Shown: positions 3,971 through 39,719 of the stretch, piece after piece
How the letters are laid out: the number at the start of each line of letters is the position of its first letter
Position numbering within the stretch: position 1 is the stretch's first letter
NCBI GenBank assembly: GCA_011056835.1
Contig: DSDU01000004.1
Span: forward strand, 1 to 41,663
Length of the DNA: 41,663 bases
Direction of reading: 5' to 3'
Origin: Deltaproteobacteria bacterium
GTDB lineage: Bacteria; Desulfobacterota; Syntrophia; Syntrophales; UBA6807
Translations under genes and position numbers: made by a program
The notes under the pieces: model-generated
What the model was told of the DNA's origin: nothing
The model's database searches: none
The model's input: the letters and a program-made list of their open reading frames with translations, nothing else

Positions 3971-3987
3971 AGCAATTGGCATGCCAA
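3971..3987 (-). promoter_or_regulatory. Sigma-54 (-24/-12) promoter
   Basis: Minus-strand TTGGCATG-CCAA-TTGCT matches the RpoN consensus YTGGCACG-N4-TTGCW, with exactly 10 bases between the GG and GC dinucleotides. The -24 element also forms a 12-bp palindrome TTGGCATGCCAA. The predicted start is near 3960. The neighbouring gene encodes a sigma-54 activator. Confidence 0.75.
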
Positions 3988-4246: not shown

Positions 4247-6358
4247 CTAGATCGCGGGGATCTCCTTTGCAGAATTATCATTTTTTTCCAATTTTTTAAG
4301 CTCCCGTATCAACGTATAGCGGGAGATGCCCAATCGTCGTGCCGCCACGGTCTTGTTCCCGTTACTGAGTTCAAGAGTTCGTTCCAGAATCCTTTCCTTA
4401 ATTTTTGCTGTCAGTTGTTCAATCAACAACTTGTAATTTACGGGATGGGAATATCCGTAAGGAGAATAATCATCATCTGCCGAGGCGGGAAGTTCTTTCT
4501 TTGCCGCTTTCTTAATTTCCGCGGGAAGATTATCTTTCGTTATATACGCTCCCACATTCTGAAGGATCATGACACGCTCGATTATATTTTTAAGTTCTCT
4601 GACGTTTCCGGGCCAGGGATATCTTATCAGAACCTGCTCAGCTTCCTTTGTAAAGCCCACCACCTTTTTGTTAAATTTGTTATTAAACTCTTCGATATAA
4701 TGCTGGGACAGAATGATGGTGTCATCATCACGCTCACGGAGCGGGGGTATGGTAATGGGGACGACGCTGATCCGATAATACAGGTCCTCGCGAAACAATC
4801 CTTCGGACACCATTCGATTTAAGTCCCTGTTTGTTGAGAAGATAAATCGTACATTGATGGGGATGTTTTCGTTCCCGCCCAATCGACGGATATGGCCGTC
4901 CTCAAGCATTCGCAGAAATTTTGCTTGGAGTTGAAGGTTCATATCGCCTATTTCGTCAAGAAGCATCGTACCACCGCTTGCATATTCTATAAGCCCGAGC
5001 TTCCGTTTCCTCGCATCGGTAAAAGCGCCGGCCTCAAATCCAAAAAGCTCGCTCTCCAGCAAGGTGCCGGGTATCGCGGCACAATTGACATCGACGAAAC
5101 GTTTGGCTTTTCGTCCGCTCTGTCGGTGGATTGCCCGAGCCATCAGTTCTTTACCGGTACCGCTTTCACCCTGAATCAGTATGTTGGTATCGTGCTTCGC
5201 AACTTCCGTGATCACATGAAAAATGCCCTGCATTTTATTTGAGTTGCCGATGATATCATGAAAACCGAGCAGTTCATCTTCACGCTTTTTGAGCATCTCC
5301 ACTTTTGTTTTCAGTGATTCCGCCTCCATGGAAAGCAGCGAATGCATGATAGCGTTGTCATATGACGCTGCTGCATTTTTGACAAGGATGTCGAGGACGT
5401 TCACTTCATCAGGTCCATATGATCCCTTCGGTTTCGCCAGGTACAGGACAGCTTTGAATTTTTCGGCTATGTTGAGAGGAATGGCGATTTCAGATTCGAA
5501 TTCTTTGAACAATGAGGGGATGCCTGAATTATTACCAGATGTCTGAATAATTGTATCTTCTGAATCCAGGGCATGTTTGATAATGCTTTGGTTAATCCGA
5601 GCCATGAATTCTTCTTCCGTGTCGCCGACAACAATTCCCCCGTCGCTTATGAGACATTTGTCTTTTTTAACATCAAGAAAATAGATGAGTGCCTTGGTCG
5701 ATTCACAGATCTTGAGCGCGTTCTCGATCACAATCTTGTGAATATTATCAAGAACATAATTGGCGTTCAGCTGCGACACCGCCTCCTGAAGAACCACGAG
5801 CCGTTCGATCCTGTTTTGATTATCTTCAAAGAGCCTGGTGTTGTGGATGACAATGCTGATCTGGTTGGCAAAGGTCAGTAGTATGCCGATTTCATTGTCC
5901 GAGAATCTCGTTTTTTCCTTCGACCAGAGACATATGATACCGATAACCTCATCCTGTGTTTTCAAGGCGGCGTAAAATGTCGAGCCGCGCTTGTAGAATT
6001 TGGTGATCTTGCGATCCGCCTCCGTTATTCTCGGGTCCGTCTCGGCATCTTCCAGCGCGATATAGTAACCGCTTTTAGCAACTCGTGTTTCGAGGGAGTC
6101 GTGCTTGTAAATGTTCAGATTCGTTGAAAAAGCATATTTTGCTTCTTCAGGACTGTAGTTTTTCACCACTTTTGTCGTGAGATTTTCCTTTTTTTCATCG
6201 AGGAGACAGATAATGCCGCGGTGAAACCCCATCGTTTCAACAACATCATCGAGTATCCGTTGGAGGATGTCGTCGACCCGTGAGGGAAATGTCAGCAATG
6301 TACTGATACGGAAAAAAGCATCAAGAATTTGTTCGGTGGAATAGAAGAAGTCGTACAT
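4247..6358 (-). CDS. GAF-GAF sigma-54-dependent transcriptional activator
   Basis: Enhancer-binding protein (703 aa) that would remodel RpoN holoenzyme using ATP. Order: two GAF sensory domains (about 20-170 and 195-340), a short coiled-coil linker, the AAA+ domain (about 370-600) and a Fis-type helix-turn-helix (about 655-692). Seen directly: Walker A GESGTGKE at 397-404, Walker B LLDEIGD at 466-472, LYYRISVV and PPLRER, WPGNVREL, and the Fis helices around GNKTVAARRLGISRYTLIREL. The sigma-54-contacting loop reads GAFTDA (444-449) instead of the common GAFTGA. There is no receiver domain and no adjacent kinase, so control is probably by a small ligand bound to a GAF domain. The likely target is the sigma-54 promoter immediately downstream. 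Similar layout occurs in NifA/FhlA-like regulators; the signal cannot be read. Confidence 0.93.
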   Translation of the reverse strand: MYDFFYSTEQILDAFFRISTLLTFPSRVDDILQRILDDVVETMGFHRGIICLLDEKKENLTTKVVKNYSPEEAKYAFSTNLNIYKHDSLETRVAKSGYYIALEDAETDPRITEADRKITKFYKRGSTFYAALKTQDEVIGIICLWSKEKTRFSDNEIGILLTFANQISIVIHNTRLFEDNQNRIERLVVLQEAVSQLNANYVLDNIHKIVIENALKICESTKALIYFLDVKKDKCLISDGGIVVGDTEEEFMARINQSIIKHALDSEDTIIQTSGNNSGIPSLFKEFESEIAIPLNIAEKFKAVLYLAKPKGSYGPDEVNVLDILVKNAAASYDNAIMHSLLSMEAESLKTKVEMLKKREDELLGFHDIIGNSNKMQGIFHVITEVAKHDTNILIQGESGTGKELMARAIHRQSGRKAKRFVDVNCAAIPGTLLESELFGFEAGAFTDARKRKLGLIEYASGGTMLLDEIGDMNLQLQAKFLRMLEDGHIRRLGGNENIPINVRFIFSTNRDLNRMVSEGLFREDLYYRISVVPITIPPLRERDDDTIILSQHYIEEFNNKFNKKVVGFTKEAEQVLIRYPWPGNVRELKNIIERVMILQNVGAYITKDNLPAEIKKAAKKELPASADDDYSPYGYSHPVNYKLLIEQLTAKIKERILERTLELSNGNKTVAARRLGISRYTLIRELKKLEKNDNSAKEIPAI

Positions 6359-17796: not shown

Positions 17797-19326
17797 TCAC
17801 ATTTCACGATGTTCTGTCCTCAGGAGGTCGCGAACAGTTTTAACCGGATTGAATGTCATGATCGGAACTTCCACAAAAACAGTATTCCAGGCTGCCATCG
17901 CACCGTTCCAGAGACCGGGGTGTTCAAGGGCTTTCAGCTGTCTGCCTTCAAAGGACTTTTCAGAAATGAAGAATGCCGATCTGTCGACGAACGCCTCAAG
18001 ATCGTATTTTGCTCCACGATGATCTTTAACACCGCATACGATGTCAACAGGGTTGAAATGCGTCGATGAGGACCAGATACTCCGCTGCTCTTCCGATGCC
18101 ATGTCGACTTGTGCCTGTTCAATAATTTGAAGCGAAGGTGTTCCGTTTTTGATGACCCAGAATGGACCTCCTCCCGGTTCTCCCTCGTTCTTCACCATGC
18201 CGCAGACCCGAACAGGCCTGTTCAATATATCAATAAGAGCTTGAATCTTCCGGGTATGGGGGAAATCTTCAAACTTCGAAGGAAGAGTGACTGATAGTGT
18301 ATCCCGGCAGAACGATCCGATATCGGTGATAGTTTTGTCGCTCACGTTATCTTTCTCAAGATCACGGATGTGCGAGTGTATCCGGTCCTGGAGCAATACC
18401 AGATATCCGCCGAGAACCTTTTTAAAAAGAATGGTGTCAGGCTTCAGCCGATCAGGAACTATATTGTCGATATTCTTAACAAATATAATATCGTGATTGA
18501 TGGTATTGAGGTTTTTCAAGAGAGCTCCGTGACCTCCAGGCCTGAAGATGAGCTTGCCCGCTTCGTCTCTGAACAGCTGATTCGCCGTATCAACGGCTAT
18601 GGTATCCGTCGACGAAAGCTGCAGAGAAACCATGATATCATACCGTGTATCATATCGAAATTCATAGAGCTTGACTACATCGGTAATATGCTTTTCAACA
18701 TCGGACTGATGTTCCGATGATATGGTGAAGTGGATACGACAGTTCCTGTTCGAATCTCTGATATAACCGACTGCTTCAACAAGATGTTCTTCCAGTGCGG
18801 TGCGGGAATATTCCCCGTATGAGTGAAATTTGAGAACAGCTTTGGGAAGATGGCCGTAATTAAGCCCTTCCGCTGTAAGAATGTGATCCAGAATCGTGGT
18901 GAAATCATCGTTTTCACTAAGTGATGCAATGTCAAGCCCCTTCCGTGACAAGACCTTTTTGAGGTCATTGTAAAATGGGTAATTCGGCAAGTCGTCTGCA
19001 ATCATCTGAGCGTCATGACTTTCATTGAAGTCTTCCATGTCTCTGAATTCAAACCAATCTTTGAACATTCGACTTGCAGCTCCCGACGCGGGTACAAATT
19101 TCATCATCTTTCCCTGCCTCGCCGCCTCATCATGGGCTTCAATATATATGTGTCTTTGATCGGCGGGAATAGTTACAATTCCGTCATCCATGGTGCATGG
19201 CCTGTCAAGTCGCATCGGTTGAAAACCTCTCCTGAAAATGTCGAGTTGATGCATTACGGCATCAACAGACAATCCTTTCCGCGTGATCATGTCAACATCC
19301 TGAGGGGTCATTATTGTGTGAGTCAT
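17797..19326 (-). CDS. DUF4301 family protein
   Basis: A 509-residue cytoplasmic protein matching the DUF4301 family by its start (MTPQDVDMITRKGLSVDAV, MHQLDIFRRGF) and KFVPASGAASRMFKDWFEF, which resembles a nucleotide-sugar-pyrophosphorylase-like phosphate-binding turn. Conserved-looking segments include FRPGGHGALLKNLN and GEPGGGPFW. The family's function is not established. The ATG at 19326 follows GGGAGG with a 6-base gap; an in-frame TTG two codons earlier is less likely. It is transcribed divergently from the pilT operon, whose promoter lies about 70 bases upstream. Confidence 0.85.
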   Translation of the reverse strand: MTHTIMTPQDVDMITRKGLSVDAVMHQLDIFRRGFQPMRLDRPCTMDDGIVTIPADQRHIYIEAHDEAARQGKMMKFVPASGAASRMFKDWFEFRDMEDFNESHDAQMIADDLPNYPFYNDLKKVLSRKGLDIASLSENDDFTTILDHILTAEGLNYGHLPKAVLKFHSYGEYSRTALEEHLVEAVGYIRDSNRNCRIHFTISSEHQSDVEKHITDVVKLYEFRYDTRYDIMVSLQLSSTDTIAVDTANQLFRDEAGKLIFRPGGHGALLKNLNTINHDIIFVKNIDNIVPDRLKPDTILFKKVLGGYLVLLQDRIHSHIRDLEKDNVSDKTITDIGSFCRDTLSVTLPSKFEDFPHTRKIQALIDILNRPVRVCGMVKNEGEPGGGPFWVIKNGTPSLQIIEQAQVDMASEEQRSIWSSSTHFNPVDIVCGVKDHRGAKYDLEAFVDRSAFFISEKSFEGRQLKALEHPGLWNGAMAAWNTVFVEVPIMTFNPVKTVRDLLRTEHREM

Positions 19327-38227: not shown

Positions 38228-38977
38228 CTAAAACTTCCTCCGCAACCCCGCCAATCCGATCAATCCAAACCCAAGAAGCAGCATAGTGGTCGGTTCGGGA
38301 ACAGGGGTTTCGTGAAGGAGAATTGATGTATCAATGCGAAAATTTGATTCGGTTGTATGCCGTTCGGCAAAAAACAGATCGAAATTATAGTCATTACCGT
38401 TCTCTAATCCTAATGTGTCCAAATTTACACTGCCGCTGATAGCGCTATGAATTCCCCCCAGGTCAACAACAAGCTGCCCGTCGATAAAAACCCACAAATC
38501 ATCGTCTCCGGTGAATGAAAAGGTTTCGCCACCCAGGTAGGTGAAGCTGGTATGAATCTCGAAAGTAAAATGGTAGTTGTGAGATCTCCCTTCGTTTCCT
38601 AACAACTTGTTGTCAATAGGAAAGAACGAATTATTGCTGTATGAATAGACATTGCCGGAACCTCCATTATCAAGGGTTATAGTAAAGCTGTCGGTCATGT
38701 TGACGCCAACAACATCGTTGTACCATTCATTGAATAGAGACAAATCACCGGGCATTGAGGACGTTGTTTTTGTGGTGCGTACCGGTTTTTCGTCAAGTCC
38801 CAATTGGTTTTCAACCAAGCCCGTGACATGTCCGTCAATTGAACTTTCGAAGTGGGGATGAGAGGAATTGAAATCACGTATCGTGCCCGTCAAACTAATC
38901 GTATCCGCCTGCGCCATTCCCACCAAACCAAAGATCAATAGCACGGATGCTAGTCCTGCAAAGTATTTCTTCATCAT
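38228..38977 (-). CDS. Fibro-slime domain protein with PEP-CTERM sorting signal
   Basis: A 249-residue exported protein. Signal peptide: [18 protein letters not shown] then VGMAQA. The body matches the fibro-slime domain: [59 protein letters not shown] and [18 protein letters not shown]; this domain is related to PA14-type folds. The C-terminus [20 protein letters not shown] plus RRKF is a PEP-CTERM tripartite signal, so it should be processed by an exosortase and displayed in the extracellular matrix. No exosortase gene lies in the window. GGGGG precedes the start by 5 bases. It is controlled by a sigma-54 promoter. Confidence 0.92.
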
Positions 38978-39060
38978 TCATTCCCCCTTATAATAATTAT
39001 TTTTAATATCTGATGTTCTCCTGCCAGGCGTTGAGCGTGTGTGATAAACTTGATAATTAT

Positions 39061-39080
39061 ATTTGCAAAATACATGCCGT
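39061..39080 (-). promoter_or_regulatory. Sigma-54 promoter of the PEP-CTERM gene
   Basis: Minus-strand CGGCATG-TATT-TTGCAAAT: GG and GC are exactly 10 bases apart as in RpoN -24/-12 promoters; the -24 T is replaced by C. The start is predicted near 39053, about 76 bases before the ATG. Confidence 0.7.
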
Positions 39081-39141
39081 TTCGTAACCAATTGAATAAA
39101 GGTAAGATTTAAAAATTATTGCCTTTCAAGCCTTTTCACAG

Positions 39142-39160
39142 TTGTAAAGAAATCCGACAA
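39142..39160 (-). promoter_or_regulatory. Upstream repeat 1 (probable activator-binding site)
   Basis: Core ttgtaaagaaatccgacaa, with TTGT/ACAA ends, embedded in a longer match (39133-39166) to the copy at 39222-39255. It lies 64-82 bases upstream of the -24 element, a usual distance for sigma-54 activators. Confidence 0.6.
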
Positions 39161-39230
39161 TTTTTTGCTCCGGACGTGCATGGCCGTGCTGAATCCCTTG
39201 ACAGGGCTACATCAACGCAAACTTTCACGA

Positions 39231-39249
39231 TTGTAAAGAATCCCGACAA
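39231..39249 (-). promoter_or_regulatory. Upstream repeat 2 (probable activator-binding site)
   Basis: Core ttgtaaagaatcccgacaa, matching the first copy at 17 of 19 positions, in the same orientation and 89 bases further upstream. The conserved flanks include TTTCAC and a T-run. Confidence 0.6.
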
Positions 39250-39259
39250 TTTTTTCATT

Positions 39260-39719
39260 ATTTTACAATTCTCGTATTTTTCAAGATTTTTGTAGATCAG
39301 CGTATATGTTTTCATTTTAAAAAATCAGAAAGCGACTTGTAATATTGAAAGTGGTTTTTTACATTCATAATAATACGCAATAGCTGTACGTGTTGGCAGT
39401 GAAAATTATTTCATTCAATAAAACACACCAGTCTTGCCGGAATTCACAGGACTGCCAAGATATATGATGGCCTCTGTTCAGTGGGAAGCGCCGCGAAAGA
39501 AACCCTTGTCGTTGAAGAGGCAAGGGGACAGCTGTCGACTGCGTGGGTCCACTGTTTCAAATACAGGCAGATTAGCGCTGGTTCTTGTTGACCAGTAGAA
39601 TAAGAAACAGTTCGATCGTACCCTTAGGCACGACGGATCATGTTGACCGGAGGTGCACGAATGTGGTAGTTTCTCTCTGGATAATTCGGGACAATCGTAA
39701 GGAAACTCCCGATAACAAC
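39260..39719. other. AT-rich spacer between the PEP-CTERM gene and htpX
   Basis: No gene seen in about 460 bases. The part nearest the PEP-CTERM gene is strongly AT-rich, which would favour DNA bending; the part near htpX is balanced. No clear htpX promoter was identified. Confidence 0.45.

What the first reader, a model, noticed from the sequence alone, without database searches (positions are those of the whole stretch)
38978..39260. Sigma-54 promoter plus paired 19-bp upstream repeats control a PEP-CTERM matrix protein
Seen: a minus-strand -24/-12 element with exact RpoN spacing (39061-39080), and two direct copies of a 19-bp motif with TTGT/ACAA ends at 39142-39160 and 39231-39249, matching at 17 of 19 positions. 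Known: exosortase/PEP-CTERM systems have been linked to RpoN and a PrsK/PrsR-type regulatory pair. Inference: the repeats are binding sites of that activator, and the motif could be used to find the whole matrix-protein regulon of this organism.
Basis: partly seen in the sequence, partly recalled or inferred. Interest (0 to 1): 0.65.

Follow-up and report, generated by a model that had tools for sequence, protein, structure and literature searches.

The report
Paired PEP-CTERM boxes before σ54 promoter
The paired DNA repeats are copies of a switch first predicted in 2006, the binding box of the regulator PrsR, which turns on secreted matrix (PEP-CTERM) proteins; the new detail is that the boxes and promoter keep spacings set by the turn of the DNA helix in this bacterial order.

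Summary
The minus-strand -24/-12 element (CGGCATGTATTTTGCA, 39064-39079) and two direct 19-bp repeats (17/19 identical) lie upstream of a fibro-slime PEP-CTERM gene. The genome holds 24 copies of the motif (up to 3 mismatches) against 3 for a reversed control. Boxes precede every PEP-CTERM locus whose upstream DNA is in the assembly (6 of 6). One contig carries an exosortase, prsK and prsR, then another box pair.

This is the "PEP-CTERM box" of Haft et al. 2006: a 17-nt motif ending TTTACA, about 63 bp, then a σ54 site. The D. vulgaris PrsR was later shown to bind its predicted PEP-CTERM targets by DAP-chip.

Apparently new is the geometry in Syntrophales. Box-to-box spacings cluster at about 90, 101, 111 and 121 bp; box-to-promoter distances at about 65, 75, 97, 109, 120 and 131 bp. 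In the short class an IHF-like site lies 18-19 bp upstream of the -24 element. The window has all of these (89 bp, 64 bp, 39085-39097). This suggests a helically phased loop enhancer. Binding, IHF occupancy and regulation were not tested here.

The parts
38228..38977 (-). Regulated gene: secreted 249-aa protein with signal peptide, fibro-slime (TIGR02148)/PA14-like domain and C-terminal PEP-CTERM sorting signal (VPEP...GLAGLRRKF)
   Evidence: Fibro_Slime 134.6 bits, cut-off 45; PEP_CTERM 25.8, cut-off 16; PF07589 32.7, cut-off 20.7
39064..39079 (-). sigma-54 (RpoN) -24/-12 promoter CGGCATGTATTTTGCA; predicted start of transcription near 39053 (inferred)
   Evidence: starts 64 nt after the proximal box, inside the 61-66 nt class; no good site in any control region
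39085..39097 (-). IHF-like site ATTCAATTGGTTA (8 of 9 consensus positions of WATCAANNNNTTR) between box and promoter
   Evidence: same fixed offset (-19/-18 from the -24 T) in 13 of 28 short-class promoters, shuffles at most 3
39143..39159 (-).
   Evidence: matches Haft motif 1 in length, TTTACA end and distance to the sigma-54 site
39232..39248 (-).

Best explanation
This is the enhancer-promoter region of a PEP-CTERM matrix gene, a member of the PrsK/PrsR regulon. Phosphorylated PrsR (an NtrC/AtoC-type sigma-54 activator) binds the two boxes. An IHF-like bend between box and promoter, and helical spacing that keeps both boxes and the promoter on a fixed relative face, let the PrsR assembly loop back onto sigma-54 RNA polymerase at -24/-12 and open the promoter. 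The gene product is exported and processed by the exosortase encoded next to prsK-prsR. Shown by sequence: the boxes, the promoter, the regulon, the prsK-prsR-exosortase cluster, the quantised spacings and the fixed IHF-like site. Inferred: PrsR binding here, IHF occupancy, looping and cooperative use of the two boxes.
For: Motif recurrence 24 versus 3 in the control, mostly as pairs. Boxes at 6 of 6 testable PEP-CTERM loci; C54, C58 and C159 lack readable upstream DNA, and C54 shows a perfect sigma-54 site TGGCACGAGCCTTGCT at its contig edge. Exosortase-like gene, PrsK and PrsR on C166, with the GAFTGA sigma-54-contact motif and a C-terminal Fis-type helix in PrsR. RpoN present. Sigma-54 site after the box in 74% of loci, 0% in controls. 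56 box pairs in 20 of 155 order genomes, none in the reversed control, with spacings only in bands 87-93, 98-103, 108-114 and one at 76, continued by 120-122. Box-to-promoter comb with period 11.1; single-box loci, held out, keep the same phase (V-test p=0.005). IHF-like core at a fixed offset in 13 of 28 promoters. Published support: Haft 2006, DAP-chip of DVUA0057, RpoN-dependence of pepA in Aquincola (PMC9850573).
Against: No binding or expression data exist for this organism. The best exosortase hit is below the curated cut-off (98.2 against 105.55 bits), though it sits beside prsK. For single-box loci a free-period test is not significant (p=0.35); only the test at the pre-set phase is. 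The genome encodes many other AtoC-like activators, and in D. vulgaris two regulators share a motif (PMC4641369), so another activator could also bind.
Confidence: 0.86

Rival explanations
1. The boxes bind PrsR, but the distal box is not an active partner: it is a redundant or duplicated copy, and the spacing comb is inherited from a few ancestral duplicated promoters.
For: Single-box loci exist and also have sigma-54 sites. Some promoter regions within a genome are recognisably homologous (clusters).
Against: The comb survives after collapsing homologous regions (109 of 121 kept) and after leaving out each of the four genomes tested. It holds for opposite-strand box pairs (91, 109, 112, 112, 113 bp) and in a few non-order genomes (78, 89, 90 bp; a fourth at 63 does not fit). 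Drift without selection would fill the gaps at 94-97 and 104-107.
Confidence: 0.17
2. A different sigma-54 activator (one of the other AtoC-like regulators in the genome) recognises the box; PrsR is only genomically linked.
For: Dozens of related activators are present. In D. vulgaris, DVU0110 and DVUA0057 share a predicted motif (PMC4641369).
Against: PrsR is the only family member over the curated cut-off and lies beside the exosortase-like gene and a box pair. Its phylogenetic profile matches the motif (Haft 2006), and its D. vulgaris counterpart was enriched on all five predicted PEP-CTERM targets.
Confidence: 0.07
3. The repeats are chance or a structural repeat with no regulatory role.
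For: A lone -24/-12 match is common by chance in the window.
Against: Motif enrichment, position before PEP-CTERM genes, and coupling to sigma-54 sites all far exceed controls.
Confidence: 0.01

Closest known systems
PEP-CTERM box / motif 1 + motif 2 upstream of PEP-CTERM genes, with PrsK-PrsR (Haft et al. 2006, PMC1569441)
   Same: 17-nt motif ending in TTTACA, sometimes repeated; spacer averaging 62.8 bp; sigma-54 -24/-12 site; PEP-CTERM gene; prsK-prsR-exosortase in the genome.
   Different: Here the box is usually paired with quantised spacing; about half of the promoters use box-to-promoter distances over 92 bp, the maximum Haft reported; an IHF-like site sits at a fixed place; some targets are PilZ or other non-PEP-CTERM genes.
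DVUA0057 regulon of Desulfovibrio vulgaris (Rajeev 2011 PMC3333781; Kazakov 2015 PMC4641369)
   Same: The PrsR of D. vulgaris; [quoted passage not shown] regulon of exopolysaccharide/biofilm genes with sigma-54 promoters.
   Different: Helical phasing, cooperativity and IHF sites are not mentioned in the text of the 2015 paper (term search).
LuxO-sigma-54 qrr enhancers of Vibrio (PMC4740811)
   Same: Natural sigma-54 enhancers whose loop lengths (about 80-120 bp) cluster in steps of about 11 bp.
   Different: Different activator and target (small RNA genes). There the comb is enhancer-to-promoter only; here box-to-box spacing is also quantised.

Membership tests
PEP-CTERM box (Haft motif 1/motif 2) | 17-nt motif ending TTTACA upstream of a PEP-CTERM gene | tested here: met
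   TGTCGG-N5-CTTTACA twice at 39143-39159 and 39232-39248; PEP-CTERM gene at 38228-38977. The logo itself is a figure and could not be compared base by base.
PEP-CTERM box (Haft motif 1/motif 2) | sigma-54 -24(GG)/-12(GC) site 32-92 bp (mean 62.8) after the last motif 1 | tested here: met
   CGGCATGTATTTTGCA starts 64 nt after the proximal box
PEP-CTERM box (Haft motif 1/motif 2) | Motif enriched at other PEP-CTERM genes of the same genome | tested here: met
   6 of 6 PEP-CTERM loci with readable upstream DNA
PrsK/PrsR regulatory system | PrsR equivalog (TIGR02915) above cut-off | tested here: met
   626.1 bits, cut-off 502.6, C166:4731-6059
PrsK/PrsR regulatory system | PrsK (TIGR02916) adjacent to prsR | tested here: met
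   424.6 bits, cut-off 300, C166:2382-4454
PrsK/PrsR regulatory system | PrsT TPR lipoprotein (TIGR02917) in genome | not tested
PrsK/PrsR regulatory system | PrsR physically binds the box | not testable with these tools
   only precedent: DAP-chip of DVUA0057 in D. vulgaris (PMC3333781)
Exosortase/PEP-CTERM sorting system | Exosortase (EpsH, TIGR02602) in the genome | tested here: inconclusive
   98.2 bits against cut-off 105.55 at C166:1577-2107, next to prsK; ADVCSGIRS motif present
sigma-54-dependent transcription | rpoN in the genome | tested here: met
   two genes, 459 and 443 bits, cut-off 277
IHF-assisted sigma-54 promoter | IHF consensus site between enhancer and promoter | tested here: met
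   ATTCAATTGGTTA at 39085-39097, 8 of 9 positions, same offset as in 13 of 28 promoters
IHF-assisted sigma-54 promoter | IHF genes present and IHF bound | not tested
   no genome search left for ihfA/ihfB; binding needs an experiment

The most novel reading that the evidence does not exclude
In Syntrophales, PrsR works from an obligatorily phased two-box enhancer. Two PrsR assemblies about 8.5, 9.5 or 10.5 helical turns apart are brought together by DNA looping, and IHF at a fixed place sets a second phased loop to sigma-54 RNA polymerase. Evolution changes both spacings only in whole helical turns.
Probability: 0.6. Interest if true: 0.5.

Novelty: new member of a known kind. Interest (0 to 1): 0.4.

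Why it matters
It confirms a 2006 bioinformatic prediction in an uncultured Syntrophales lineage and gives a near-complete list of its matrix-protein regulon. The natural comb of spacings across many promoters is an unusually clear evolutionary signature of DNA looping by a sigma-54 activator. It turns the question of how PrsR uses repeated boxes into a simple 5-bp versus 11-bp insertion test.

Tried and rejected
The first genome pattern was one base too long (20-mer) and found nothing useful. A box-to-promoter pattern search used N6 instead of N5 inside the sigma-54 site and gave 0 hits in 151 genomes; that was my error and is not evidence about the long class. Setting a non-own centre by locus failed, so Gamma/Betaproteobacteria were not surveyed for pairs. 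The hit at window 18464-18482 was rejected: it is inside a 511-aa ORF. A weak hidden second box upstream of single-box loci was sought and mostly not found; several instead have an opposite-strand box. The one-value-per-genome-per-bin periodicity test is not relied on, because its binning favours an 11-bp period.

Full report
Observation. The window is contig C6 of a 3.4-Mb, 261-contig genome. The two 19-mers and the minus-strand -24/-12 element are present as described. On the coding (minus) strand the order is: distal box TGTCGGGATTCTTTACA (39248-39232), proximal box TGTCGGATTTCTTTACA (39159-39143), IHF-like ATTCAATTGGTTA (39097-39085), sigma-54 site CGGCATGTATTTTGCA (39079-39064), and the gene from 38977. 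The gene encodes a fibro-slime PEP-CTERM protein.

More than chance. In the window, 3 matches at up to 3 mismatches against 0.06 expected. In the genome, 24 against 3 for the reversed pattern. Most of the good hits come in pairs 87-91 or 110-112 bp apart. After the boxes, a sigma-54 site scoring at least 0.85 occurs in 74% of 62 regions, and in none of the reverse-complement, shuffled or upstream controls.

Regulon and regulator in this genome. TIGR02595 finds 12 PEP-CTERM tails. Those on C6, C26, C51 (2), C75, C87 and C202 (3) lie downstream of boxes, making six loci. C54, C58 and C159 genes begin at contig edges, so their upstream DNA is missing; C54 shows a perfect TGGCACGAGCCTTGCT there. 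Boxes on C21, C32, C107, C115 and C166 point off or nearly off their contigs, so their target genes cannot be read. The box pair on C28 precedes a gene without a recognised PEP-CTERM tail; its promoter match is weak. Contig C166 carries an exosortase-like gene, prsK and prsR in order, then a box pair 110 bp apart. Two rpoN genes are present. PrsR is 88% identical to that of a Deltaproteobacteria MAG and about 70-76% identical to Syntrophaceae, Syntrophus and Smithella, so the organism belongs to or near the Syntrophales.

What is already known. Haft et al. 2006 described a 17-nt motif 1 ending in TTTACA, sometimes repeated, then a spacer of 62.8 (S.D. 10.6, range 32-92) bp and a sigma-54 motif, before 99 of 167 proteobacterial PEP-CTERM genes, and named PrsR as the binder (PMC1569441). 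In D. vulgaris the response regulator DVUA0057, listed as PrsR by Haft, pulled down all five predicted PEP-CTERM targets in DAP-chip (PMC3333781); its regulon was later reconstructed as exopolysaccharide/biofilm genes (PMC4641369). In Aquincola, pepA is RpoN-dependent (PMC9850573).

What seems new: spacing. A gapped search for two boxes over 155 genomes of the order gave 56 pairs in 20 genomes and none for the reversed control. Start-to-start spacings fall into bands 87-93 (29 pairs), 98-103 (15) and 108-114 (11), with one at 76 and none at 58-75, 77-86, 94-97 or 104-107. A longer-range search added 120, 121, 122 and three scattered values, 136, 156 and 159. Outside the order only four pairs were found: 78, 89, 90 and 63; the last does not fit. 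After removing homologous regions the periodicity stands (R 0.59 at 11.0 bp, p at most 0.0002), and it survives leaving out each of the four genomes tested. Opposite-strand box pairs under 130 bp apart show 91, 109, 112, 112 and 113 bp.

Distance to the promoter. Box-to-sigma-54 distances cluster at 61-66, 74-76, 97-99, 108-110, 119-122 and 127-135 (R 0.71 at 11.1 bp for paired loci). Single-box loci, tested separately, are not significant with a free period (p=0.35) but keep the phase set by the paired loci (p=0.005). About half of these distances exceed Haft's maximum of 92.

IHF-like site. In short-class promoters the core WATCAANNNNTTR (up to one mismatch) begins 19 or 18 bp upstream of the -24 T in 13 of 28; shuffles never exceeded 3 at any one offset. 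IHF-like sites are also enriched over dinucleotide shuffles in long-class spacers (14 of 19, 6.6 expected) but not upstream of the distal box (13, 12.5 expected). The window has this site at the same place.

Mechanism. The best reading is a sigma-54 enhancer: PrsR on two boxes, an IHF bend, and loop contact with sigma-54 RNA polymerase, with helical phase constraining both spacings. A precedent for enhancer-promoter combs of about 11 bp exists in Vibrio qrr genes (PMC4740811). Binding and looping are inference. I found no paper describing phasing or IHF for PEP-CTERM promoters in the library searched, but that library lacks most subscription journals.

Limits. The spacing pattern was noticed after the fact, then tested on wider searches. 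Pair detection used exact half-sites (TGTCG, TTTACA). The sigma-54 score is a hand-weighted consensus. IHF genes were not searched for. PEP-CTERM calls in relatives used a regular expression, not the curated model.

Noticed in passing
G000:C32 (L031, 1-60) and G000:C115 (L034, last 130 bases): Both contigs carry the same sequence (ATTAGAGCCTCCTGAAAAAGTAAAACACATTGATAT) just downstream of a box or box-promoter, apparently the end of a repeated, possibly mobile, element inserted in two leaders of the regulon.
   Followed up: partly
G000:C13:14818-16215 and C66:11198-12595: Two full-length rpoN genes in one genome (contamination estimate 4.66%); which one serves the PEP-CTERM promoters is unknown.
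   Followed up: no
L095, L099, L100, L102, L103, L105, L106 (about 58-59 bp upstream of prsR): In Gammaproteobacteria a box (TGTAAAGTNNNCCGACA-like on the + strand) sits at a fixed place at the prsK-prsR junction, inside the variable 3' end of prsK; possibly autoregulation.
   Followed up: partly
L194, L209 and L224 (relatives in the order): Boxes with sigma-54-like sites also precede PilZ-domain proteins (Pfam PilZ above cut-off in L194 and L224; L209 resembles L194), hinting at a link between the PrsR regulon and cyclic-di-GMP.
   Followed up: partly
G000:C75 (L032), PEP-CTERM tail at C75:2045-2113: The gene after the C75 box pair reads as a 208-aa ORF without the tail, while the PEP-CTERM tail lies in a separate open frame: frameshift or assembly error.
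   Followed up: no
window 3971-3986 (-): A strong sigma-54 site TGGCATGCCAATTGCT lies just downstream of a 703-aa sigma-54 activator with GAF-like N-terminus (4247-6358, -), without PEP-CTERM boxes: another sigma-54 target.
   Followed up: partly
window 39260-39290 and the equivalent place in C51, C87, C202, C26, C32: A further conserved stretch just upstream of the distal box (TGTAAAAT-N4-GTGTAAAA-like) is shared by several promoters of this genome.
   Followed up: no
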